Positions 290 to 26,571 of a stretch of 39,782 nucleotides of DNA are shown here, piece by piece. The notes under the pieces were generated by a model. It had not been told where the DNA came from, searched no databases, and saw only the letters and a list, made by a program, of their open reading frames with translations. The translations under genes were made by a program, and so were the position numbers. Source of the stretch: an uncultured Mycoplasmatota bacterium. GTDB taxonomy: Bacteria; Bacillota_I; Bacilli_A; RF39; UBA660. Within the stretch, counting starts at the first letter, position 1; each line of letters begins with the position of its first letter. The DNA is taken from NCBI GenBank assembly GCA_947302655.1, contig CAMYVW010000004.1:1-39782 (forward strand), given 5' to 3'.

Positions 290-318
290 TTGACTTTACA
301 TGAAAATTTTTGTACAAT
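290..318 (+). promoter_or_regulatory. Rightward sigma-A promoter of the packaging and head operon
   Basis: -35 TTGACT (290-295), exactly 17 bases, -10 TACAAT (313-318). Transcription should begin near 325. It lies back-to-back with the leftward promoter; the two -35 hexamers are 6 bases apart. It is the only recognisable promoter upstream of the terminase, portal and capsid genes. Confidence 0.75.
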
Positions 319-330
319 GTGGGTGAGACT

Positions 331-338
331 GGAGGTGG
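331..338 (+). promoter_or_regulatory. Ribosome binding site that argues for an ATA start
   Basis: GGAGGTGG is a strong Shine-Dalgarno sequence about 6 bases after the predicted transcription start. At 8 bases from GGAGG the in-frame codon is ATA (344). The ATG at 317 lies inside the -10 box and TTG 290 is the -35 box, so neither should be in the mRNA. Confidence 0.5.
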
Positions 339-343
339 TAAAA

Positions 344-1396
344 ATAGTAAAATTAGATTATACTATTGACTCTCCAGAAGAGCGAAATGAGTTGGTGAAA
401 AAGATTCTTGAAGAGAATCCGGATCCCAATCCCCAATATCTTGAGATATTGGCGGATTATCTGATCCTCTGTATGGAGAAACAAGAAAGAAAAGAAAAAC
501 GAATATTAACTGAGAATAGAATGACTACAGTTAACAAAAGAGAAACTTCATATGAAGGTCTTGTTTCCCAGTTTGAAAATGGTGAAGATGGAATTTATAA
601 TTTAATTAATGAAAGTAAGACTCAAATATTTCAACCAAAAGTAACTATAACGAAAAAAGATTTAGAAGAAATACCTCATTTGCGGCAAGTGCGGGAAGCC
701 ATTCAACTCTGGGAAGAACAATTAAAGAAAGCTGAAGGAAGAGATAAATATATTATTAAAAAAGCAATTATTGACTTGCGGAAAAGTCAATATTTAATAA
801 AAGAAGCTTATAGAAAACCAGTTAGATTAAACAATGTAACTCATTCTAGGCATACAGTTCATTTAGAAGATAGTTTTTCCTTTAGTGAAGATGGATATAT
901 CATTCCTGAAGGAGTTTCTTTATGTAGTCCAAAAGTTTGTAGTGCAATTTTATGTAATTATTCTCGTTTAAAGGAAGCCGGGTGGGGTAATTTTGAAGAT
1001 GACACCTGGTATTTAATGCAAGATTTTGATAGAATTAGTGAAAAAGCATTAAAACCGTATCCAATTTATGAAGAAATTGTTATTGCAAAGATAGATGGAC
1101 TGCAAAATATACAAATTCAAGAGCTTTTACAGGCAAAATTTGGAATTACACATAGTTTAGAATATATTTCTTCACTTTGGCGGAATAAAATTCCTAAATT
1201 AATTGCTTCTGTAGCCGAAGATGAAACGCTCAGTTGGTATTATTTAAATAAAGAATATGGAAAATATAAAAAATGCTCGCGTTGCGGTCAAGTAAAATTA
1301 GCTCATAACAAGTATTTTTCTAAAAATAAGACGAGTAAAGATGGTTTTTATTCCATTTGTAAAGCTTGTCGTAATTCAAAGGCCAAAAAACATTAA
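344..1396 (+). CDS. Zinc-ribbon DNA-binding protein, first gene of packaging operon
   Basis: About 350 residues from the ATA at 344, reading (M)VKLDYTIDSPEERNELV. The reading frame extends upstream through the promoter, so the start is uncertain; GTG 335 is another possibility. The N-terminal two thirds are charged and helical. A segment near residues 245-300 (IYEEIVIAKIDG to LWRNKIPKLI) looks helix-turn-helix-like. The C-terminus is a four-cysteine zinc ribbon: C311-x2-C314, 24 residues, C339-x2-C342, then a basic tail. Its place just upstream of another zinc-ribbon protein and the large terminase suggests packaging-site recognition or transcription control. I do not recognise a named family; a small-terminase role is inference. 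Confidence 0.65.
   Translation: MVKLDYTIDSPEERNELVKKILEENPDPNPQYLEILADYLILCMEKQERKEKRILTENRMTTVNKRETSYEGLVSQFENGEDGIYNLINESKTQIFQPKVTITKKDLEEIPHLRQVREAIQLWEEQLKKAEGRDKYIIKKAIIDLRKSQYLIKEAYRKPVRLNNVTHSRHTVHLEDSFSFSEDGYIIPEGVSLCSPKVCSAILCNYSRLKEAGWGNFEDDTWYLMQDFDRISEKALKPYPIYEEIVIAKIDGLQNIQIQELLQAKFGITHSLEYISSLWRNKIPKLIASVAEDETLSWYYLNKEYGKYKKCSRCGQVKLAHNKYFSKNKTSKDGFYSICKACRNSKAKKH
769..792 (+). repeat. Perfect 9-bp inverted repeat inside the first gene
   Basis: TATTGACTT (769-777), loop GCGGAA (778-783), AAGTCAATA (784-792). It lies inside coding sequence, far from any gene end and without a T-tract, so it is not a terminator. It may be chance, an mRNA hairpin or a protein-binding site. Confidence 0.35.
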
Positions 1397-4751: not shown

Positions 4752-6368
4752 ATGCAAAATCGGCAAGAGCAGATACGCAAAAAAGGCTTTGATATGTTAA
4801 AAGCACCTACTTCCGCAGTTGATAGTTATGCAAAATTAAAGATTGGAACTCAAAAATTTGATAATGCGGTTATTGATTTAAGATATTATGATAAATTAGA
4901 TAGACGTGGTTTTAGAAATAAAGAATTTGTTATTCAAGCTTTAATCAATAATGATATTCCTACTTTACGCGCAATCTCTCGTTACTTTTATAAAACAAAT
5001 GGTATTTATCAAAAGATTGTGAATTATTTTGCATCTATGTATAGATATGATTGGTATATGGTTCCAGAGTTATTAGTAGATAATGCTAAAGAAGAAAAGG
5101 TTGTAGCAGATTTTACAAAGACATTAAGATTTTTTGATGCTTCTTATATTAAGAAATCTTGTGGAGAATTTGCTTTAAAAGTAATTAGAGATGGAGTATA
5201 TTTTGGATATGCATATGAAGGTGAAGGAAGAATATTAATTCAAGATTTACCTTGGAGATGGTGTCGTTCAAGATATAAAATTGCAGGCGTTCCCGCAATT
5301 GAATTTGATATGACATTCTTTGATACTAAATTTCCAGATGTTGCATATCGTATGAGAGTTCTTGATTTATTCCCTCCAGAATTTAAAAAGGGTTATATTC
5401 TTTATAAGCAAGGTAAATTACCAAATGATGAAATAGTATCAGCTGATATTACTGGTAAAGGACATTGGTATTTATTAGATCCAGCTTGTGCTTTTATGTT
5501 TGGCCTTAATGGATTAAATGGTTTACCTTTATTTATTAATGCTATTCCAGCTTTATTAGATTTAGATGCAACCCAGGGAATTGATAGACAAAGACAATTA
5601 CAGAAACTTTTAAAAATTATTGTTCAAAAATTACCTTTAGATAAAAATGGAGATTTAATTTTTGATGTTGATGAAGCTAGAGATATTCACAATAATGCTG
5701 TTGAAATGTTACGTGATGCTATTGGAGTTGATGTTTTAACAACATTCGCGGATATTGAAGGCATTGATGTTTCTGAGGCTAATGCTACAGTTAAAGATGA
5801 TTCTTTAAATAATGCTGAACGTACTGTATATAATGCATTAGGTACTTCTAAAAATATTTTTAATACTGATGGTAATTTAGCATTAGAAAAGTCTATTCTT
5901 GCAGATGAGGGTTCATTAAGAGATTTAATTTTGCAATTTGAAGTTCTATTTGATACTATTGCACAAAGACAAAGTGTAAATAAGAAAAAATGGAATTTTA
6001 GATTTTATATGTTACATACAACACAAAATAACTATCAAGCATTGGCTAAATTGTATAAAGAACAAACACAAATGGGATTTTCCAAGATGCTTCCACAGAT
6101 TGCTCTTGGACAAAGTCAAAGTTTCATTCTTAATACAGCTCTATTTGAAAATAATGTATTACATTTGAGTGAGATTATGATTCCACCTCTTATGTCTTCT
6201 ACTTTATCTGCAGAAGATTTACAAAATTTGGGCAGTAAAAAACAAGAAGATCAAAATAAAAATAAAACTAATATAGATGGTCAATCTACTGGTGAAACAG
6301 GACGGCCTAAAAAAGATGAGGGTGAATTAAGTGACAAAACCATTCAGAATAAAGAGTCAATGAATTAA
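4752..6368 (+). CDS. Portal protein
   Basis: 538 residues from an ATG after TAAGGAGG. The portal is the dodecameric ring at one vertex through which terminase packs DNA and to which the neck attaches. Evidence is position after terL and before the protease-scaffold gene, the right length, and a sequence of portal type: an N-terminal alpha/beta region (YFYKTNGIYQKIVNYFASM), a tryptophan-rich wing, a central helical stretch with DIEGIDVSEANATVKDDSLNNAERTVYNALG, and a hydrophilic disordered C-terminus (KKQEDQNKNKTN) typical of portal crown ends. No catalytic motif is expected. Confidence 0.88.
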   Translation: MQNRQEQIRKKGFDMLKAPTSAVDSYAKLKIGTQKFDNAVIDLRYYDKLDRRGFRNKEFVIQALINNDIPTLRAISRYFYKTNGIYQKIVNYFASMYRYDWYMVPELLVDNAKEEKVVADFTKTLRFFDASYIKKSCGEFALKVIRDGVYFGYAYEGEGRILIQDLPWRWCRSRYKIAGVPAIEFDMTFFDTKFPDVAYRMRVLDLFPPEFKKGYILYKQGKLPNDEIVSADITGKGHWYLLDPACAFMFGLNGLNGLPLFINAIPALLDLDATQGIDRQRQLQKLLKIIVQKLPLDKNGDLIFDVDEARDIHNNAVEMLRDAIGVDVLTTFADIEGIDVSEANATVKDDSLNNAERTVYNALGTSKNIFNTDGNLALEKSILADEGSLRDLILQFEVLFDTIAQRQSVNKKKWNFRFYMLHTTQNNYQALAKLYKEQTQMGFSKMLPQIALGQSQSFILNTALFENNVLHLSEIMIPPLMSSTLSAEDLQNLGSKKQEDQNKNKTNIDGQSTGETGRPKKDEGELSDKTIQNKESMN

Positions 6369-16815: not shown

Positions 16816-16848
16816 CAAAATTTGGAGAGAAAGGAGCGAATAAAAGGT

Positions 16849-19800
16849 ATGCCTAAACAATTAAATGTAAATCTTGCTTTTACAGCAGATACGGAAGCAG
16901 CTAAAAAGCAAATTTTAGAATTGCAAAAGGCTTTACAAGCAGTGGCAATGATGCCAAGTAAATCTTCTGCTTTATTTGATGATAAACAATTAAAAAATGC
17001 CAGTAAAGCAGCTATGGAATTACAAAAACATTTACAAGCTGCTGTAAATGTAAATACTGGACAATTAGATTTATCTAGATTATCAACTAGTTTAGCTGCA
17101 TCTAATAAAGATTTAAAAACTTATGTTAATACATTGATGCAAGCTGGTTCAGTAGGACAAAATGCATTTATGCAATTGGCAAAAACTGTTTCTACCGCTG
17201 AAGCTCCTATTACAAGAGTTAATGCTCGTTTAGCAGAAATGGGAACCACTTTAAAAAATACTGTAAGATGGCAATTATCTTCTAGTATTTTACATGGTTT
17301 TATAGGTTCTGTACAAGCAGCTTATGGATATGCTCAAGATTTAAATCAATCTTTAAATAATATTAGAATTGTTACTGGAGCTAGTGTTGGTGAAATGGCT
17401 GCTTTTGCAGAAAAAGCTAATTATGCAGCCAAAGCTTTAAGTACAACAACAACTAGTTATACTGATGCTGCATTGATTTATTATCAACAGGGTATTCGTG
17501 ATCAAGAAGAAATAGCCGGTAGAACTGAAACAACTATTAAATTAGCTAATGTTTCACGACAAAGTGCGGAAGAAGTTTCTCAGCAAATGACCGCTATTTG
17601 GAATAACTTTTATGATGGATCTAAAAGTCTTGAATATTATGCCGATGCAATTACTGCTTTAGGTGCATCTACAGCATCCAGTTCTGCAGAAATTGCAGCA
17701 GGTCTTGAAAAATTTGCGGCTATAGCTGATACGGTCGGATTATCTTATGAATATGCAACTGCGGCCATGGCTACAATTACTGCTCAAACGCGTCAAAGTG
17801 CAGATACTGTAGGTACTGGTTTAAGAACATTATTTAGTAGATTAGAAGGTTTAAAATTAGGAGAAACTCTTGAAGATGGGGTTGATTTAAATAAATATTC
17901 TAAGGCTCTTGAAACAGTAGGTGTGCAGGTATTAGATCTTAACGGTGAAATTCGAGATATGGATAGTATTCTTGATGATTTAGGAAATCGTTGGGATGAA
18001 TTAACGCAAGCACAAAAAATAGCACTTGCACAAACTGTAGGTGGTGTTCGACAATATACTAATTTAATTGCTCTTATGGATAATTGGGACAAAATGCAGG
18101 CTAACGTATTAACTGCTCAAGGTTCTGAGGGAACTCTCCAAGAGCAAGCTGATATTTATGCTGAATCCTGGGAAGCGGCACAAAAACGAGTTAAAGCTGC
18201 CGCGCAATCTATTTATGCTGATTTATTTGATGATAAATTTTTTATTACATTAACTGATGGTTTAGCTAAATTAATTGATACTATTAGTGGTATTACGAAA
18301 GGATTTGGAGGATTACAAGGTGTTTTATTAGCTGTTGGTTCAATATTTTTACAAAAATATGCATATGAAATGCCAGCTGCTTTAGAAAATTTTAAACAAA
18401 ATTTAATGGTATTCACTGGTCAAGCAAAAACTGAAATGATAAAAATGCAAGATCAGATGACTGATAATCTTAATAGAATTAAAAATGATCCTTCTACTTC
18501 TTCTGTTGGAAAAATTCAAGCTGAGGGTTATGCTGAAGTTATTAAAATGAGGCAACAATTACTTCAACAAAGTAATACAATGAGTCAAGCTCAACAAGAT
18601 GAATATAAAAGACAAATAGAATTAGTTCAATCTGGATATGATGAAGTTCAAGCAATTCAAGAAAAAATTAATGCTAAACAAAAAGAAATTGCTGTTACAG
18701 AACAGGCTATTCAAGCAAAAGCAAAAGAACAGGCGGCTAATTTAGTATCTGAACAAAGTGATTTATATCAAGCTAGACTTGGTTGGGAAAATAAACGTAG
18801 TCAAATAACAGATGATAATTCATTAGGTACAGAAGATAAAGCTGCTCGTTTACGAGATATTGACAGTGAAATTGATAAAATTGATGTTAAATTAGGAGTT
18901 ATTGAACCAAAGCTTCAAAATCTTGGTAATAGCATGGGTAAAGGTGCAAAAGATTTTAAAGATGCTATGTTAGATGTTACTAATGCCAGTACAGCAGAAG
19001 AAAAATTAAGAATGTTAAAAAATGTTGCTGATATGGCAGGTGAAGCAATTGGTAAAATAGCGGAAAAATATACTGATCAAACTAAACGTGCTGTGGCTAT
19101 TGAAAATATGGTATCAAGTATTCGGAGCCAAGCCGATGCTTGGAAAACTGATACTATTGCTATGGAAAATAATAGCGCAGCAGTTGATAGTATGAAACAA
19201 AAAATGGATGCTTATCTTGAATCTTTACGTCAGCAGGGTCAAGAACAGAATATTAATAAAACTTTTATACGAGATTTAGATGAATTAAAAAATAAATTAC
19301 AAGAAGTAAATAGTCCAGAAGGTTTGCAAAAGATTGCTGATATGTTTAAAAACTTAGGAGGAGATGCTGAATTATCTTTAACGGGATTAAGTCAACATTT
19401 AGAGCAATTAGAAAAACAATTATTAGAATTAGGTATAGATCCAAGTGCTTTAAATAATTACAGAAAAGAAGTAGAACACTTAGCTCAAGATATAACTAAT
19501 ATGGGCAATACTTTAGAAAATACTCGAGGTCAAGTTAATAGTTTTGAAAAAGGTTTAACTGCGAATAGTGTTGTACTAACAAAATTTGCTTCAACAACTA
19601 TGGCTGTTTATAATGTTATTAATACAATTAATAATGCATTTAAAACTTTTGGAGATGAAAATGCTACAGCTTTACAAAAAGTTGGGGCCGCGATGAGTAT
19701 TTTAATGTCTGTTACAATGGCTTATAATCAAATTTCTTCTTTAGCAACAGCTTTACAAACATCTAAAATTGGATTATATATTATGGAACAAGGTGCTATT

Positions 19801-22800
19801 GAAGGAACAACTGTTGCTCAATGGGGTTTAAATGTTGCTATGGAAGCTAATCCTATAGGTTTAGTTATTGCAGCAGTTACTGCATTAATTGCGGTTTTGG
19901 CAATTTTAATTGGTAGTATTACAGCAATTACTAATTATATGCAACGTTATGATAATGCAATTAAGGATGCTTCTAAAACTTTAGAAGAATTAACTAAAAA
20001 AGAAGAAGAGGCTCGACAAAATGCTGATAATTTACGTTCTTCTATTGATAAATATGATTCTTGTGTAGAGAAATTAAAAAATTGTACCAAAGGAACTAAA
20101 GAATGGCGAGATGCTTTAAAAGAAACTGGTACAAGTGCTTTAGAAGTAATAGATCAGGTCGATGAATTTTTAAGCAATGAAGATTATAACAAATTATTAC
20201 AAGAATATAAAGAAAAAGGTACTTTAAATGCTGATATTTTACAATCTGCTACAAATCAAGCCGATATACAAGCTGGACAAGCATTACTTGCAAAATCATT
20301 AGGAGAATATAAAGTAACAGAAGCTAAACTAAATAAAGAAATCGCAGAGTTACGTCATGATATAGATAGTTCTACAGATTCAAATTATGATAATGAACAA
20401 TTAGAATCTGTTCTTAAGAATAATTTATCTGATTTAAGTGAAGCATTAGATGCTCAAGATTTAAGAAAAAAATTACAAAAATTAGGAATGGATGTTTCTA
20501 GCGTAAGTGATGCAACAATAGATGAATGGTTAGTAAACATTCGAACAATGTCTAATACAGCATTGGGTGCAGCTCAAAAATTAGGATTAATTGCTCAAAT
20601 TACTGTAGACGAATATACCGCAGGAACTGGAGCTTCAGAAGAGAGTAAAGATTTTGCAACTCATGTATTAACCAATGAAGCTATAGCATCTCAAGACTAT
20701 TGGCTTAAGATTGCTGAAGGTGCAGCAAGTAATCATCCACAAAGTAGAGCTTTAGAAAAACAATTAATAGAAGCATATAGTGAAGCAACGGGAGTTAATT
20801 TTTCCGTAAGAAATGGTATTCAGTGGAATGATGGAAAATTACATTGGCAAGATGAACAAGGTAATAAATATAATTTAGCTCCAGAAACAATAGCCGCAAT
20901 AAATGCAGCTGCAGATGCTGAAAATGGTATTAATCGAGCCATTGAAAAAGCTAATGAATTAATGGCTAATATGGTTGGAGAAAATGAAAACTTAGCTAAA
21001 TCTATTGATTTAAATGAACAAGGTAATATTAATGTTGATAAATATGTAGGTCAACTTTCTAAAAGCGTTATAGAAAATGCTAAAGATAAAACAGGAGATG
21101 AATTATTAGAAGCTTTACTTTTAGATCCAGAACAAGTAGATAAAATTGCAGAAGCTTATGGAACTGATAGAGATACTATTATAAATGCTTTGGTGGCAAG
21201 TGTTAAAAACAGTGCTAATACATATGATCAATTAGGAGAAGATTTAGCAGAACCAATTAAAGATACTTTCCAAAAAATGATGGCTGCAGCTGGAGATATT
21301 AGTTTAGAAGATGCTCAAAAAATGGAGGCTCAGTTAAAAAAGATATATGTTGATTCTGGTGGAAAAATGGATGTTGTTAATACCTATGCTAATTTTATGG
21401 AAAAATTGGGTAAAGATGCTCCTGAATTTCAAGAAGCTCTTGATGGTATAGATTGGAAACATGCAGATATTCAAGATTTAACTGATATTTTTGATCAATT
21501 AGGCATTGAAACAGAATTTAGCACAGAAGAATTATCAAAATTTTTACAGGTAATGAGATTTGTTCGTCCAGAAAATTCTCAATCTCCAGAAGAGCAATAT
21601 AAAGCAGTATCAAGTGTTACAAAAGGATTATCTACTGGAGATATAATTTCTAGTAGTGATTATGATCTTTTAGAACAATACGGTCTTGGGGATTTTTTTA
21701 AACAAACAGCGGATGAAGAATATATGTTAATGGCTAGTAGTGAAGATTTACAAGCCGCATTAAAAAATACAGGAGCTGAATTTGGAGGATTTATAGAGCG
21801 TCTTAATGATTTAAATCTTCAATTAATGTTAATGAATCAATGGCAAGAGAAAGGTCTTCATTATGAAGATTTTGAAGGAGAACAGCAAGTAGGTTCATCT
21901 GGATTTGATACTCAACTTCAAGCTGTTAATACTTTTTCAACAGAGTCTGGTATAGATGCTGAAACATTAGCTGCTATTAATGCTGGTGATTACAGTCCTG
22001 ATAATCTTGATGCTTTAGTTACTGCTTATGGAAATTTAAAAGATGTTCTTGGTGATGATGTTATTGAAGATAGTATTAGAAATATTACCGAAGAAGAAAA
22101 ACAACGAGAAGAACAAATGAAAACCTCTGCGGCTGCAGAAGATGTAAATATAGAAAATGTTCAACAATATAGTAAATTTTTAAAAGAAGAAGCTGATAAT
22201 TTAGATTGGATTAATGATGAATTAGCTGATAATGAAGAAGCTATTTTAGGAGTTGCTGTTGCTTGGGAAGATGCTATTGAAGGTATTGAAAAAATTCAAA
22301 AAGAATGGAAAAATTGGAATAAACAAGGATTACAAACTCCAGAAGTATTAGGTGAAATGACTGATGTTTTATCTGATATGTTTAATATGGATGTTAGTAA
22401 TGATTTTGTTACTGAACATTTAGAAGAAATTCAGCGTTTAGCCGAAGGAGATATGTCAGCCATTGATGATTTAGGATTAGCCTTAGCACAAAATACAATG
22501 TTACAAGATATTCCAATTGGTTTTGATCAAGAAGAATGGAATAATCAAGTAGAAGGTATATTTAATGATATTGATAGTTTTGGATTGGAAAATATTGAAG
22601 TTGGTGCTAAAATTGAAGATGCTCCTTTCTATGATGGTTTGGAAACCATGTTTTTAAATGCTCAAACTGCTGAAGAAGATATTAATAATGTTTTAGGTGG
22701 TATTGGTTATGATCCAAAAGTAACTATGGAGACTGTTACAATTGATAGTGTACAACAAAGTGATAGTGATGGATCATATCAAATTACTTATACTGGATTA

Positions 22801-25800
22801 GATGGTAGCGTTCAAACTGCAACAGTAGATGAAAATTTTGCTAATAGTCATAAACAAGGTGATACTATTACAATTCCACACATTGAAGGTAGTACATTTA
22901 CAGGACGAGCTAAAGGCGCTGGACACTCTGGCCGCACAGGTGGTGGCGGAGGAGGTGGCGGTGGTCGTCGAAGAGGCGGAGGCCGCAGAGCTGAACGTAA
23001 TCGTCAAGCAAAAAAACCAACCGATCAAAAAGAGCGTTATCATGTATTAAATAATCAACTTCAAGATATTAATGCACAATTAAAGAAAATTGATACTGCT
23101 TATGATCGAGCTTTTGGAACCGCAAAAATAAAGTTATTAGATCAACAGATTGCTAAACAAAAACAATTAGTAGCAAAACAAAGAGAATATTTAGCGGAAG
23201 TTAGAAAAAATTATAATTTAGATAAGCAAAATTTAGCTAGTTCTGGTACAAAGCAATTTTGGAGTGAAACAGATCAAAAATTAAAAACTGTAAATGCTAG
23301 TGCTAATTATTTAGGTATGGGTTTACAGTTTGATAATAATGGTACTTTATTAAATTATGATCAATTAGTGGCTGCTAATGTTGCTGCTTACAATGCCGCA
23401 GTAGATAAATTTAATAAAGCTAAAACTGATGATAAAGCTGCTAAACGAGCATTTGAAATTGCCAGTGCTCAATATGAAGGATTTAATGAATTATTAAAAC
23501 AATATGAAGAAACTCAAGATTTATTAGCACAAAAAGAACAAGAGGTAATCGATGCTCAAAATGCAGTTTATGATAAGCTTTTAGAAAAAACTCAATTAGT
23601 TGTTCAATTAAAAATTGATGTAGAAGAAGATAGTTTAAATTTACTTAATTTCTTATTAGAACGACTTCAAGATAATGCTTATGCTGCAGCTCAAAAAATT
23701 TCTTATTTAGGAGATAAATTAACATCTACAACAAAGAAAATTGATGCATATAAACAAGGATTAGTTGATATATTTAATAATCATGATTTAAATGGTAATA
23801 ATATAATTAATCAAATGATGGCTGGAACTATTAAACCAGATGAAGTATTAAAACAAATGGAAAATACTGGTAATACTTTTACTGAAAATGAAGCAAAAGC
23901 AATTCGTGATTATACTACTGGCATTTTAGACCAAATGGCTGAAGCAGAAAATCTTCGTAAAGAAACTATTGGACAAATTGGAATGGTTATGGATGCTAAT
24001 ATTAAAAAATTAGATAAAATAGCTGATAAAATCAATGCTTTAAAAAATATGACTGCTTCATATAAAAATTTAGTTGATTTAACTGGAAGAGAATATTTAA
24101 AAATTACATCTACAATGTATGACGAAATAGAAAAAACTAATGTTCAATTAGCAACTCAAGAAACTAATTTTGCTCGTCAAAGAAAAGATCAAGCCGAAGC
24201 TCAATATACTCATTTAAAAGAACAATATGAAAGTATAAAAGATACTTTAAGTGAAGAAAGACGAGTTGATTGGGAGCAACAGTTAGATGAGGCTAAAAAA
24301 TATGCAGATGAAATGACTGATAACTATTATTCAACATGGGAAAATGCAATTGAAGCAGTTACAACTAGATTTGAATCTGCTATGAAAAATATGGCTGAAG
24401 ATTTTAGTAAAATAATGGCTGGAGCTGCTGGAAATTTAGAGGGATTACAAGAAAGATTTGATTTAAAAGAAAAAATTAAAGAGACTTTTGTTCCAGAATA
24501 TGAAAAAATGTATCAATTAACTAAATTGACTCGTGATGCTCAAAAGAAAATTGATGAATCAAGTAATTTAAAAGTAAAACAAGAATTACAAAGAGTACAA
24601 CAAAAGATTTTAGATGCTCGAAATAGTGAGGTTAAATTAAGTCAATACGAATTAGATTATTTACAGAGAGAGTTAGATTTAAAAGCTGCTCAATTAGCTT
24701 TAGAAGAAGCTTCTAGAATAAAAAGTCAAGTTCGTATGACTAGAGATAGTGAAGGTAATTATTCTTATGTATATACTGCTGATGAACAAGCAGTTGAAGA
24801 AGCAGAACAAGAATATAGTGATAAATTATATGAAATGCAGAGATTAAATGAAGAATATATTCAAGAATTACAATCACAATTATTAGGTTTAGAGCAAGAT
24901 TATATTGATGCTATGCAAGAAGCTGCTGATATTTATGGAATTGGAACTACAGAATATTATGAAGCTATTCAAAATATTCAAGCTGATTATCAAGAATATT
25001 TTGAAGCTTTAAATGAAGAATTAAATTTAGCTTTAGAAAATCAAACAGAAGTATCTACTCTTCATGCTGAATTATATGTTCAATTAACAGGTGATGTTTA
25101 TCAAGCTAATGTAGATTTAATAACTTCTTGGGATGAAACTATGTTAGCTGCATTAACTGGTTATGAATCAATGGCTGAATATGAACAAGTTTGGGCAGAT
25201 GCAACAAGAGATGTTTATAATGCTGCAACTGACGCAGCTTTAACTTGGGAACAAGATTTAGAAAATGTTTATGATGCAGCCGAGGTAAAAATAGATGATT
25301 TTACCGATAAAGCAGTAAATGATTTACAAACTATACAAGATCAAAATAGTGATTTAACACAAGAAATTACAACTACTATGGGTGAAGTTTCGACTTCAAT
25401 TACTTCAGTAATTGATACAGTAGTAGAATGGGAAAATCAATATACTAAAACAGTAGAAAATATGTTAAATTGGAATACAAAATTAGTAGAAAGTTTTAAT
25501 TCTTTATTAGCCGCTTGGTCTGGCGTAAAAGCAGCGGCTGAAAAACCTGCTGATCAATCTGGATCTAGCTCTAGAGGTAGTGGACGTAGAAGTGGTGGTA
25601 GTAGTAGAGGCAGAGGCAGAGGCAGAGGTAGAGGTAGTAGAGGCAGAGGTAGTGGTAGTAGAGGTAGTGGTAGCAGAGGCGGTAGTGGTAGTAATGCTAG
25701 AGCTATAGCTCGACAAGTAGTTAATAGAACAGTACGAGATTTAACAAAAGTTAAAAATATTATAACTAAAAAAGGTGGGGGTTGTTTTGATGCTGGAACT

Positions 25801-26571
25801 AAAATTACTATGGCTGATGGATCTGTCAAAAATATTGAAAATGTAATGATTGGTGATTTTGTTTTAAGTTATAATATTAATATACAACAATTTATTGCTG
25901 AAAAAGTTACTGGAACATTAATACATTATAATACTATTAATATGTTAGATATTTCTTTAGAAGATGGTTCTCATTTAGGTATTACTAATACGCACCCTAT
26001 TTATACTACTGAAGGATGGGTATCTGAAGATATTTTAGGATCTTGGCGAGAACATAATGTTCATACTCATCCAATTAAAATTGGTCAATATATATTTGGA
26101 CAACATGGTTTAACTAAAATTAAACAAATTAATCATAGACCAGATATAGCAAATTATACTACTTATAACTTAACAGTAGAAAATACACATGCTTATATTG
26201 CTAATGGCCAATTAGTTCATAATATGAAATCTAGATTTGACACTGGAGGATATACTGGTGATTGGTCTGGTAAAGAAGGTAAAATAGCTATTTTACACTC
26301 TAAAGAATTAGTTTTAAATCAAAGTGATACTGAAAATTTATTAAAAACTGTTGGTATTATTAGAAGTATTTCACAAACTATAGATTTAAACGCATTATCA
26401 TCTAGTGGAGCTTTTAATAATTTAATTGCACCTTCTACAATAGGTAATGCAAGTTCTTTAGAACAAGATGTACATATTACTGCAGAATTTCCAAATGTTA
26501 CTGATCGAAATGAAATTTTAGCAGCATTTGATAATGTAATTAATTTAGCTTCTCAATATGCAAATAGATAA
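16849..26571 (+). CDS. Tail tape measure protein with embedded Hint domain
   Basis: About 3240 residues; ATG 16849 is chosen over the in-frame TTG 16822, with AAAGGAG about 12 bases upstream. The tape measure sets tail length and is ejected with the DNA. Domains: residues about 135-350 TP901-type tape measure core (NNIRIVTGASVGEMAAFA and onward); long coiled coils; a membrane-like helix pair around 1001-1030 (PIGLVIAAVTALIAVLAILI); a Gly/Arg linker 2025-2047; a second coiled-coil half opening KERYHVLNNQLQDINAQLKK; an Arg/Gly/Ser linker 2905-2949; a Hint domain 2979-3125; and the family's C-terminal segment RFDTGGYTGDW with GKIAILHSKELVLNQSDT. At about 0.15 nm per residue it predicts a tail near 0.45-0.49 micrometres. 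Confidence 0.95.
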   Translation: MPKQLNVNLAFTADTEAAKKQILELQKALQAVAMMPSKSSALFDDKQLKNASKAAMELQKHLQAAVNVNTGQLDLSRLSTSLAASNKDLKTYVNTLMQAGSVGQNAFMQLAKTVSTAEAPITRVNARLAEMGTTLKNTVRWQLSSSILHGFIGSVQAAYGYAQDLNQSLNNIRIVTGASVGEMAAFAEKANYAAKALSTTTTSYTDAALIYYQQGIRDQEEIAGRTETTIKLANVSRQSAEEVSQQMTAIWNNFYDGSKSLEYYADAITALGASTASSSAEIAAGLEKFAAIADTVGLSYEYATAAMATITAQTRQSADTVGTGLRTLFSRLEGLKLGETLEDGVDLNKYSKALETVGVQVLDLNGEIRDMDSILDDLGNRWDELTQAQKIALAQTVGGVRQYTNLIALMDNWDKMQANVLTAQGSEGTLQEQADIYAESWEAAQKRVKAAAQSIYADLFDDKFFITLTDGLAKLIDTISGITKGFGGLQGVLLAVGSIFLQKYAYEMPAALENFKQNLMVFTGQAKTEMIKMQDQMTDNLNRIKNDPSTSSVGKIQAEGYAEVIKMRQQLLQQSNTMSQAQQDEYKRQIELVQSGYDEVQAIQEKINAKQKEIAVTEQAIQAKAKEQAANLVSEQSDLYQARLGWENKRSQITDDNSLGTEDKAARLRDIDSEIDKIDVKLGVIEPKLQNLGNSMGKGAKDFKDAMLDVTNASTAEEKLRMLKNVADMAGEAIGKIAEKYTDQTKRAVAIENMVSSIRSQADAWKTDTIAMENNSAAVDSMKQKMDAYLESLRQQGQEQNINKTFIRDLDELKNKLQEVNSPEGLQKIADMFKNLGGDAELSLTGLSQHLEQLEKQLLELGIDPSALNNYRKEVEHLAQDITNMGNTLENTRGQVNSFEKGLTANSVVLTKFASTTMAVYNVINTINNAFKTFGDENATALQKVGAAMSILMSVTMAYNQISSLATALQTSKIGLYIMEQGAIEGTTVAQWGLNVAMEANPIGLVIAAVTALIAVLAILIGSITAITNYMQRYDNAIKDASKTLEELTKKEEEARQNADNLRSSIDKYDSCVEKLKNCTKGTKEWRDALKETGTSALEVIDQVDEFLSNEDYNKLLQEYKEKGTLNADILQSATNQADIQAGQALLAKSLGEYKVTEAKLNKEIAELRHDIDSSTDSNYDNEQLESVLKNNLSDLSEALDAQDLRKKLQKLGMDVSSVSDATIDEWLVNIRTMSNTALGAAQKLGLIAQITVDEYTAGTGASEESKDFATHVLTNEAIASQDYWLKIAEGAASNHPQSRALEKQLIEAYSEATGVNFSVRNGIQWNDGKLHWQDEQGNKYNLAPETIAAINAAADAENGINRAIEKANELMANMVGENENLAKSIDLNEQGNINVDKYVGQLSKSVIENAKDKTGDELLEALLLDPEQVDKIAEAYGTDRDTIINALVASVKNSANTYDQLGEDLAEPIKDTFQKMMAAAGDISLEDAQKMEAQLKKIYVDSGGKMDVVNTYANFMEKLGKDAPEFQEALDGIDWKHADIQDLTDIFDQLGIETEFSTEELSKFLQVMRFVRPENSQSPEEQYKAVSSVTKGLSTGDIISSSDYDLLEQYGLGDFFKQTADEEYMLMASSEDLQAALKNTGAEFGGFIERLNDLNLQLMLMNQWQEKGLHYEDFEGEQQVGSSGFDTQLQAVNTFSTESGIDAETLAAINAGDYSPDNLDALVTAYGNLKDVLGDDVIEDSIRNITEEEKQREEQMKTSAAAEDVNIENVQQYSKFLKEEADNLDWINDELADNEEAILGVAVAWEDAIEGIEKIQKEWKNWNKQGLQTPEVLGEMTDVLSDMFNMDVSNDFVTEHLEEIQRLAEGDMSAIDDLGLALAQNTMLQDIPIGFDQEEWNNQVEGIFNDIDSFGLENIEVGAKIEDAPFYDGLETMFLNAQTAEEDINNVLGGIGYDPKVTMETVTIDSVQQSDSDGSYQITYTGLDGSVQTATVDENFANSHKQGDTITIPHIEGSTFTGRAKGAGHSGRTGGGGGGGGGRRRGGGRRAERNRQAKKPTDQKERYHVLNNQLQDINAQLKKIDTAYDRAFGTAKIKLLDQQIAKQKQLVAKQREYLAEVRKNYNLDKQNLASSGTKQFWSETDQKLKTVNASANYLGMGLQFDNNGTLLNYDQLVAANVAAYNAAVDKFNKAKTDDKAAKRAFEIASAQYEGFNELLKQYEETQDLLAQKEQEVIDAQNAVYDKLLEKTQLVVQLKIDVEEDSLNLLNFLLERLQDNAYAAAQKISYLGDKLTSTTKKIDAYKQGLVDIFNNHDLNGNNIINQMMAGTIKPDEVLKQMENTGNTFTENEAKAIRDYTTGILDQMAEAENLRKETIGQIGMVMDANIKKLDKIADKINALKNMTASYKNLVDLTGREYLKITSTMYDEIEKTNVQLATQETNFARQRKDQAEAQYTHLKEQYESIKDTLSEERRVDWEQQLDEAKKYADEMTDNYYSTWENAIEAVTTRFESAMKNMAEDFSKIMAGAAGNLEGLQERFDLKEKIKETFVPEYEKMYQLTKLTRDAQKKIDESSNLKVKQELQRVQQKILDARNSEVKLSQYELDYLQRELDLKAAQLALEEASRIKSQVRMTRDSEGNYSYVYTADEQAVEEAEQEYSDKLYEMQRLNEEYIQELQSQLLGLEQDYIDAMQEAADIYGIGTTEYYEAIQNIQADYQEYFEALNEELNLALENQTEVSTLHAELYVQLTGDVYQANVDLITSWDETMLAALTGYESMAEYEQVWADATRDVYNAATDAALTWEQDLENVYDAAEVKIDDFTDKAVNDLQTIQDQNSDLTQEITTTMGEVSTSITSVIDTVVEWENQYTKTVENMLNWNTKLVESFNSLLAAWSGVKAAAEKPADQSGSSSRGSGRRSGGSSRGRGRGRGRGSRGRGSGSRGSGSRGGSGSNARAIARQVVNRTVRDLTKVKNIITKKGGGCFDAGTKITMADGSVKNIENVMIGDFVLSYNINIQQFIAEKVTGTLIHYNTINMLDISLEDGSHLGITNTHPIYTTEGWVSEDILGSWREHNVHTHPIKIGQYIFGQHGLTKIKQINHRPDIANYTTYNLTVENTHAYIANGQLVHNMKSRFDTGGYTGDWSGKEGKIAILHSKELVLNQSDTENLLKTVGIIRSISQTIDLNALSSSGAFNNLIAPSTIGNASSLEQDVHITAEFPNVTDRNEILAAFDNVINLASQYANR
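22921..22989 (+). other. Gly/Arg-rich linker in the tape measure
   Basis: Residues 2025-2047 of the tape measure include nine consecutive Gly (2031-2039) followed by RRRGGGRR. The segment separates the N-terminal half from a second coiled-coil half and should be flexible and strongly positive. Local GC content is far above its surroundings. Confidence 0.8.
25561..25695 (+). repeat. Degenerate RG/SG triplet repeat coding an Arg/Gly/Ser linker
   Basis: Imperfect tandem AGAGGC, AGAGGT and AGTGGT units encode residues 2905-2949 of the tape measure, with repeated RG, SRG and GSG units resembling an RGG low-complexity tract. It lies 29 residues before the Hint domain. Such slippery repeats tend to vary in copy number between relatives. 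Confidence 0.8.
25783..26223 (+). other. Hint (intein/BIL-type) domain within tape measure
   Basis: Residues 2979-3125 (147 residues) carry all self-processing landmarks. Block A is CFDAGTKITMADGSVKNIEN with the N-terminal Cys at 2979 after KKGGG. Block B is the ITNTHPIYTTEGW segment with the T-x-x-H motif. Block F is TTYNLTVENTHAYIANGQLV. The terminal His-Asn is at 3124-3125. The next residue is Met, not Cys, Ser or Thr, so it matches A-type bacterial intein-like (BIL) domains rather than standard inteins. No homing endonuclease is inserted. Expected chemistry is cleavage at the Cys and/or after Asn, perhaps with ligation; which occurs cannot be read from sequence. Confidence 0.88.

What the first reader, a model, noticed from the sequence alone, without database searches (positions are those of the whole stretch)
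25783..26223. Self-processing Hint/BIL domain inside a tape measure protein
A complete 147-residue Hint domain (Cys first, T-x-x-H block, terminal His-Asn) sits between an Arg/Gly/Ser linker and the conserved C-terminal FDTGGYTG segment of the tape measure. The +1 residue is Met, so ordinary intein splicing lacks its nucleophile; A-type BIL domains behave this way and can cleave or splice by other routes. If it cleaves, it frees a 115-residue C-terminal piece, the part expected inside the tail hub. That could time tail assembly, convert the tape measure into two ejected proteins, or create a reactive end that cross-links to the hub or host. BIL domains are best known from secreted bacterial proteins; one in a tape measure is unusual. 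Excluding the Hint from the ruler also shortens the predicted tail by about 22 nm.
Basis: partly seen in the sequence, partly recalled or inferred. Interest (0 to 1): 0.85.

Follow-up and report, generated by a model that had tools for sequence, protein, structure and literature searches.

The report
Self-cleaving domain in phage tail ruler
A giant phage protein that sets tail length carries, just before its conserved last segment, an intact intein-like domain of a kind known to cut itself out of proteins; if active it would separate the ruler from its tip-end plug without a protease, and in about 100 related rulers that spot instead holds other domains or linkers, often ones that bind cell walls.

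Summary
Window 25783-26223 encodes an intact 147-residue Hint domain (Cys1, T-x-x-H, block-F His, terminal His-Asn, Met at +1) inside a 3,240-residue tape measure protein (TMP). Pfam, NCBIfam, PDB sequence search, a confident AlphaFold model (pLDDT 86) and Foldseek agree. The nearest solved folds are BIL domains (Tetrahymena BIL2, Clostridium BIL), ahead of inteins.

The domain sits in a hypervariable slot directly before the conserved FDTGGYTG C-terminal segment. In relatives this slot holds LysM, bacterial SH3, PG_binding_1 or plain linkers. None of 108 related TMP loci screened carries a Hint.

It meets every A-type BIL feature tested here. Canonical intein, class 3 intein, B-type BIL and polymorphic-toxin Hint each fail a defining feature.

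The most likely function, inferred and not shown, is self-processing that detaches the 115-residue C-terminal segment from the 2,978-residue ruler: a protease-free counterpart of TMP processing known in T5 and lambda. Ligation of the flanks by aminolysis remains possible.

BIL domains also occur in phage tail J and other virion-like proteins, where +1 is often Lys or Arg (50 of 69 BIL-type Hints, viral and bacterial). So the kind is known and the TMP location appears new. Activity cannot be shown from sequence.

The parts
16849..26571 (+). Tape measure protein gene, 3,240 aa from ATG 16849 (mechanical ORF from TTG 16822)
   Evidence: TIGR01760, PhageMin_Tail and PHROG tail families
25558..25695 (+). 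Low-complexity Ser/Arg/Gly linker, counterpart of the Arg/Ser-rich linker in the closest relative L012
25696..25782 (+). Basic segment ARAIARQVVNRTVRDLTKVKNIITKKGGG forming the N-side junction (Gly-Gly-Gly before Cys1)
   Evidence: junction compared
25783..26223 (+). 147-residue Hint domain, A-type BIL features (Cys1 ... His-Asn147)
25984..26007 (+). Block B motif TNTHPIYT (T-x-x-H; His71 of the domain)
   Evidence: His71 invariant in alignments A4, A6, A7
26164..26223 (+). Block F/G: YNLTVENTHAYIANGQLVHN
26224..26226 (+). +1 residue Met (no nucleophile); +2 is Lys
26224..26568 (+). Conserved 115-residue TMP C-terminal segment (MKSRFDTGGYTG...ANR); would be the released or religated C-terminal piece
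   Evidence: 47-70% identical in relatives, alignment A2; AlphaFold low confidence, helical

Best explanation
The 25783-26223 domain is an A-type bacterial intein-like (BIL) Hint domain sitting in the modular slot of the tape measure protein of a phage whose TMP relatives are long-tailed phages of Firmicutes and gut or rumen viral contigs. Shown: fold (predicted), intact catalytic motifs, absence of a +1 nucleophile, slot position, absence in relatives. Inferred: after folding, Cys1 turns the Gly-Cys bond into a thioester and Asn147 cyclises to cut the Asn-Met bond. The two steps are uncoupled for lack of a +1 nucleophile, so the main products are the 2,978-residue ruler ending in Gly-Gly-Gly (by hydrolysis), free Hint, and the 115-residue FDTGGYTG segment. 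That segment probably stays in the tail hub as a separate plug, as the cleaved T5 TMP C-terminal peptide does. Processing would therefore be built in and would not need a protease.
For: Profile, sequence and fold matches, with the best solved folds being BILs rather than inteins. All core catalytic residues are kept although only about 28-39% of the sequence is shared with relatives. A-type BILs that lack a +1 nucleophile cleave mainly and splice sometimes (PMC4031507; PMC7664689). BILs are described in hypervariable regions of non-conserved proteins (PMC7765530), and the slot here is hypervariable. T5 TMP is cut after R1127 and its C-terminal peptide remains in the hub; lambda gpH is also cut during tail morphogenesis (PMC10038345; PMC3224144). 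The segment beyond the Hint is conserved, as expected for a working part.
Against: There is no activity data and only one TMP with the domain, so no selection test on the Hint could be run. In a phage whose relatives keep the segment attached through a LysM or SH3 domain, cutting is not obviously needed. Unregulated cleavage could detach the segment before the hub is built. The tree does not resolve where this Hint came from, so a dying intein is not excluded. The 115-residue segment gave a low-confidence model, so its role as a plug is by analogy only.
Confidence: 0.5

Rival explanations
1. The BIL excises itself and religates the flanks: Asn147 cyclises first, then the free amino group of Met+1 attacks the Gly-Cys thioester (aminolysis). 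The mature TMP would be continuous, ...KKGGG-MKSRFDTGGYTG..., and the Hint a silent passenger.
For: This route is the one proposed for A-type BIL splicing without a +1 nucleophile (PMC4031507). With the Hint removed the junction would resemble the Hint-free closest relative, which has a Ser/Arg linker and a short basic segment before FDTGGYTG.
Against: Cleavage products dominate in the A-type BILs tested. The review PMC7765530 even states that they cannot ligate.
Confidence: 0.22
2. The Hint is a recently acquired, decaying intein or an inactive fold that merely occupies the slot as a spacer or hub-side module.
For: Only one TMP carries it, with no relatives to show maintenance. It lacks the +1 nucleophile. 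The slot tolerates many unrelated modules.
Against: All catalytic positions are intact at low overall identity, with no stops or frameshifts. No homing-endonuclease domain lies in the 147 residues, and the insertion is not in a conserved site, unlike typical inteins.
Confidence: 0.2
3. Amine transfer: the Gly-Gly-Gly thioester of the ruler is attacked by a lysine side chain (TMP, hub or host envelope), making a covalent isopeptide cross-link.
For: The closest solved structure by sequence and fold is Tetrahymena BIL2, reported to form Lys isopeptide bonds (PMC8616854). Basic residues dominate at +1 of viral and bacterial BIL-type Hints (50 of 69), and here +2 is Lys.
Against: In this protein +1 is Met, and no partner is known. 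BIL2 is described with ubiquitin-like flanks and zinc activation, neither tested here.
Confidence: 0.08

Closest known systems
A-type BIL domains (Amitai 2003, Dassa 2004, cited in PMC4031507; solved BIL: Clostridium thermocellum 2lwy)
   Same: Hint fold, Cys1, T-x-x-H, C-terminal His-Asn, no +1 nucleophile, hypervariable placement; Foldseek E 8.6e-10 to 2lwy
   Different: Described in bacterial proteins; this one is inside a phage tape measure, and its activity is untested
Tetrahymena BUBL1 BIL2 (6y75, 6tmm)
   Same: Best match by sequence (5.4e-7) and fold (8e-13, TM 0.82-0.90)
   Different: Lies between ubiquitin-like domains and makes isopeptide bonds (PMC8616854); neither was shown here
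C-terminal BIL/Hint proteins of the host's own bacterial family (e.g. L186, L191, L199)
   Same: Up to 39-40% identity over the domain; L191 has the same GG|C ... HN|M junctions
   Different: Proteins in genomes of the host family with the Hint near the C-terminus (surface or secreted by the look of their low-complexity sequence, not tested); the tree does not prove descent
Viral-contig BILs in tail proteins (J-like L147 and L149; phrog_2048 tail protein L247)
   Same: Hint with Gly-rich N-side junction and His-Asn, inside phage tail proteins
   Different: +1 is Lys; found in J or another tail protein, not a TMP
T5 TMP pb2 / lambda gpH processing
   Same: TMP is cut during tail morphogenesis; the T5 C-terminal peptide stays in the hub
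   Different: Proteolytic cleavage there, against an internal Hint domain here; no peptidase family was found in this protein
LysM, SH3_3 and PG_binding_1 modules before FDTGGYTG in related TMPs, including Lactococcus phage 949
   Same: Same slot, same conserved following segment
   Different: Wall-binding families, not self-processing

Membership tests
Phage tape measure protein (TP901 type) | N-terminal TMP domain in a very long tail-gene product | tested here: met
   TIGR01760 2.2e-34, PhageMin_Tail 1.1e-26, phrog_4211 6.9e-64; portal and other virion genes upstream
Phage tape measure protein (TP901 type) | Conserved FDTGGYTG C-terminal segment shared with other TMPs | tested here: met
A-type BIL domain | Hint fold | tested here: met
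   AlphaFold pLDDT 86; Foldseek to BIL2 and 2lwy
A-type BIL domain | N-terminal Cys and T-x-x-H block B | tested here: met
A-type BIL domain | C-terminal His-Asn without +1 Cys/Ser/Thr | tested here: met
   LVHN|MK
A-type BIL domain | Hypervariable location in a host protein | tested here: met
   slot comparison over about 100 TMPs
A-type BIL domain | Autocatalytic cleavage or low-level splicing | not testable with these tools
   needs expression and mass spectrometry
Canonical (class 1) intein | +1 Cys/Ser/Thr | tested here: not met
   +1 is Met
Canonical (class 1) intein | Insertion in a conserved site of the host protein | tested here: not met
   variable slot
Class 3 intein | No Cys/Ser at position 1, WCT motif | tested here: not met
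   Cys1 present
B-type BIL | No intein-like C-terminal block G | tested here: not met
   LVHN present; TIGR01443 above cut-off
Polymorphic-toxin pretoxin HINT (PF07591) | Toxin domain following the Hint | tested here: not met
   followed by the conserved TMP segment; PF07591 only at its cut-off, 27.7 bits

The most novel reading that the evidence does not exclude
A phage uses a domesticated A-type BIL as a one-shot, protease-free switch inside its tape measure: the Gly-Gly-Gly thioester of the ruler is transferred to an amine (hub lysine or host envelope component) while the hub plug is freed, so that processing and covalent anchoring are one reaction. This would be part of a wider, mostly unrecognised class of phage tail proteins carrying BILs with basic +1 residues.
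Probability: 0.07. Interest if true: 0.88.

Novelty: new variant of a known kind. Interest (0 to 1): 0.6.

Why it matters
TMP processing during tail morphogenesis is known in T5 and lambda, where it is described as proteolytic. A TMP with a built-in self-processing domain would give a direct, mutable handle (Cys1, Asn147) on whether separating the C-terminal plug from the ruler is needed for assembly or DNA injection. The wider survey (BILs in tail J and other virion-like proteins; Lys or Arg at +1 in 50 of 69 BIL-type Hints) suggests that phages use this domain class in tails more generally; I found no such description in the papers searched.

Tried and rejected
1) Canonical intein: rejected because +1 is Met and the site is hypervariable. 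2) Pretoxin Hint: rejected because the downstream segment is the conserved TMP end. 3) Another Hint-bearing TMP: sought in 108 TMP loci, in genomes of the family, class and relatives and among the annotated phage records listed (not all rows are shown by the tool); none found. 4) Host origin of the Hint: best identity is to host-family BILs, but the tree gives no supported placement, so it is not claimed. 5) A scan with P0002 alone in viral contigs found nothing; alignment-based scans were needed. 6) The mixed Hint alignment A4 was too diverse to scan with. 7) The structure of the 115-residue end was too uncertain to search. 8) Ruminococcus phage Hint genes have no tail annotation and were not followed. 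9) An empty-site search for the J-like protein matched J proteins only from residue 36 onward, so it does not show a clean insertion there.

Full report
1. Observation. The ORF at 16822-26571 is a tape measure protein (TMP). The ATG at 16849 has a ribosome-binding-like GGAG upstream and gives 3,240 residues. Its N-terminal part matches TIGR01760, PhageMin_Tail and several PHROG tail families. The window is the whole of contig C4 of a 1.04 Mb assembly. A portal gene (4752-6368), two genes matching virion-structural PHROG families and a sigma-factor-like gene lie upstream.

At 25783-26223 lies a 147-residue Hint domain. Alone it scores above the cut-off for Pfam Hint (8.9e-9) and NCBIfam intein_Cterm (3.8e-6). 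In the PDB it matches Tetrahymena BIL2 at 5.4e-7. AlphaFold with 18 viral Hint rows gave pLDDT 86 and pTM 0.82. Foldseek ranks BIL2 (8e-13, TM 0.82-0.90) and the Clostridium BIL (8.6e-10) before any intein. Cys1, TNTH, block-F His and LVHN are intact, and the next residue is Met.

2. Setting. The last 115 residues (MKSRFDTGGYTG...ANR) are conserved in other TMPs: 47-70% identity in five viral or genome loci and lower in Lactococcus, Enterococcus and SPbeta-group phages. Directly before FDTGGYTG is a slot whose content changes between relatives. It holds LysM in L018 and Lactococcus phage 949, SH3_3 in L032, L034 and L037, and PG_binding_1 in L036. A Ser/Arg-rich linker fills it in the closest relative L012, and Gly-zipper, Cys-rich or unnamed small domains in others. 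A scan of 108 TMP upstream regions (some from the same contigs fetched twice) with a Hint profile and with the domain itself gave no significant match. A second genome of the same genus has a LysM version. The Hint is therefore one more occupant of a module-swapping site, and so far the only one of its kind seen.

3. Relatives of the domain. In the bacterial family of the assembly, proteins end in Hints up to 39-40% identical to this one, with +1 = V, A, K, D, R, T or M. L191 has GG|CFLAGTKI...LVHN|MRLF, the same junction residues as here. Their low-complexity sequence suggests surface or secreted proteins, which I did not test. Viral contigs contain many Hints. Those with +1 Cys/Ser/Thr look like inteins; in annotated phages, Hint matches fall mainly in helicases, terminases, portals and methyltransferases. 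Those without a +1 nucleophile include J-like tail proteins (L147, L149; phrog_31 1.6e-99 and 6.3e-93) and a phrog_2048 tail protein (L247). Across 94 dereplicated domains, 69 lack a +1 nucleophile, and 50 of those 69 have Lys or Arg at +1, against about 6% at +3 to +10 (Fisher p about 5e-33). The rows are related by descent, so the p-value overstates the case, but the pattern is plain. In the TMP the basic residue is at +2.

A maximum-likelihood tree did not place the window Hint with support, so its origin is open.

4. Mechanism. Shown here: predicted fold, motifs, missing +1 nucleophile, location, and absence in relatives. Established elsewhere: A-type BILs lacking a +1 nucleophile cleave mainly and can splice by aminolysis of the N-terminal thioester (PMC4031507; PMC7664689); BILs lie in hypervariable regions (PMC7765530); BIL2 forms isopeptide bonds (PMC8616854). 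Inferred: the TMP is processed to a 2,978-residue ruler and a 115-residue plug. The precedent is T5, where the TMP is cut after R1127 and the C-terminal peptide stays in the hub until infection; lambda gpH is also cut (PMC10038345; PMC3224144). In those phages the cut is proteolytic; here a domain in the right place could do it alone. I put this at 0.5, religation at 0.22, inactive or decaying domain at 0.2, and amine transfer as the main role at 0.08.

5. Membership. All A-type BIL features that can be read from sequence and predicted structure are met; activity is untested. Class 1 intein, class 3 intein, B-type BIL and pretoxin-Hint each fail a tested defining feature (see table).

6. Novelty and limits. 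I found no paper in the library describing a Hint or BIL in a tape measure (open-licence papers only). The kind is known and the context is new, hence 'new variant of a known kind'. The main limit is that there is a single example: maintenance by selection cannot be tested.

Noticed in passing
L127-L149, L239-L310 (viral contigs): BIL-type Hints have Lys or Arg at +1 in 50 of 69 dereplicated cases, often with poly-Gly before Cys1; inteins in the same set 0 of 25. May mark amine-dependent chemistry.
   Followed up: partly
L147:5932-12390, L149:5926-12390: J-like tail proteins with a BIL about 20-30 residues from the N-terminus, GG|C...HN|KGG.
   Followed up: partly
L142:1574-7084; L127, L132, L242: Tandem BILs in one protein, separated by one or a few residues, some joined directly HN|K|C.
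   Followed up: no
TMP slot of L028, L079, L087, L096, L102, also L013, L053: A recurrent small domain of the form GIAGxIWxYGxWGxxxxR...FG before the GGYTG segment; the two copies scanned (L013, L079) gave no Pfam match.
   Followed up: no
L119 upstream of FATGGYTG: Cys-rich slot segment (CGCGATCTTTCWTDCG...CSVSCHGTCRG) in a TMP.
   Followed up: no
L003, L006, L014, L020, L028 and others: Related TMPs contain in-frame stop codons (TAG or TGA), consistent with stop-codon recoding; the window TMP does not.
   Followed up: partly
window 22903-23016: Second low-complexity Gly/Arg linker in the middle of the TMP (GRAKGAGHSGRTGGGGGGGGGRRRGGGRR); might be another modular junction.
   Followed up: no
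window 290-1396: Sigma-factor-like gene (phrog_5767, 4e-47) with a C-terminal stretch matching endonuclease VII and HNH families.
   Followed up: no
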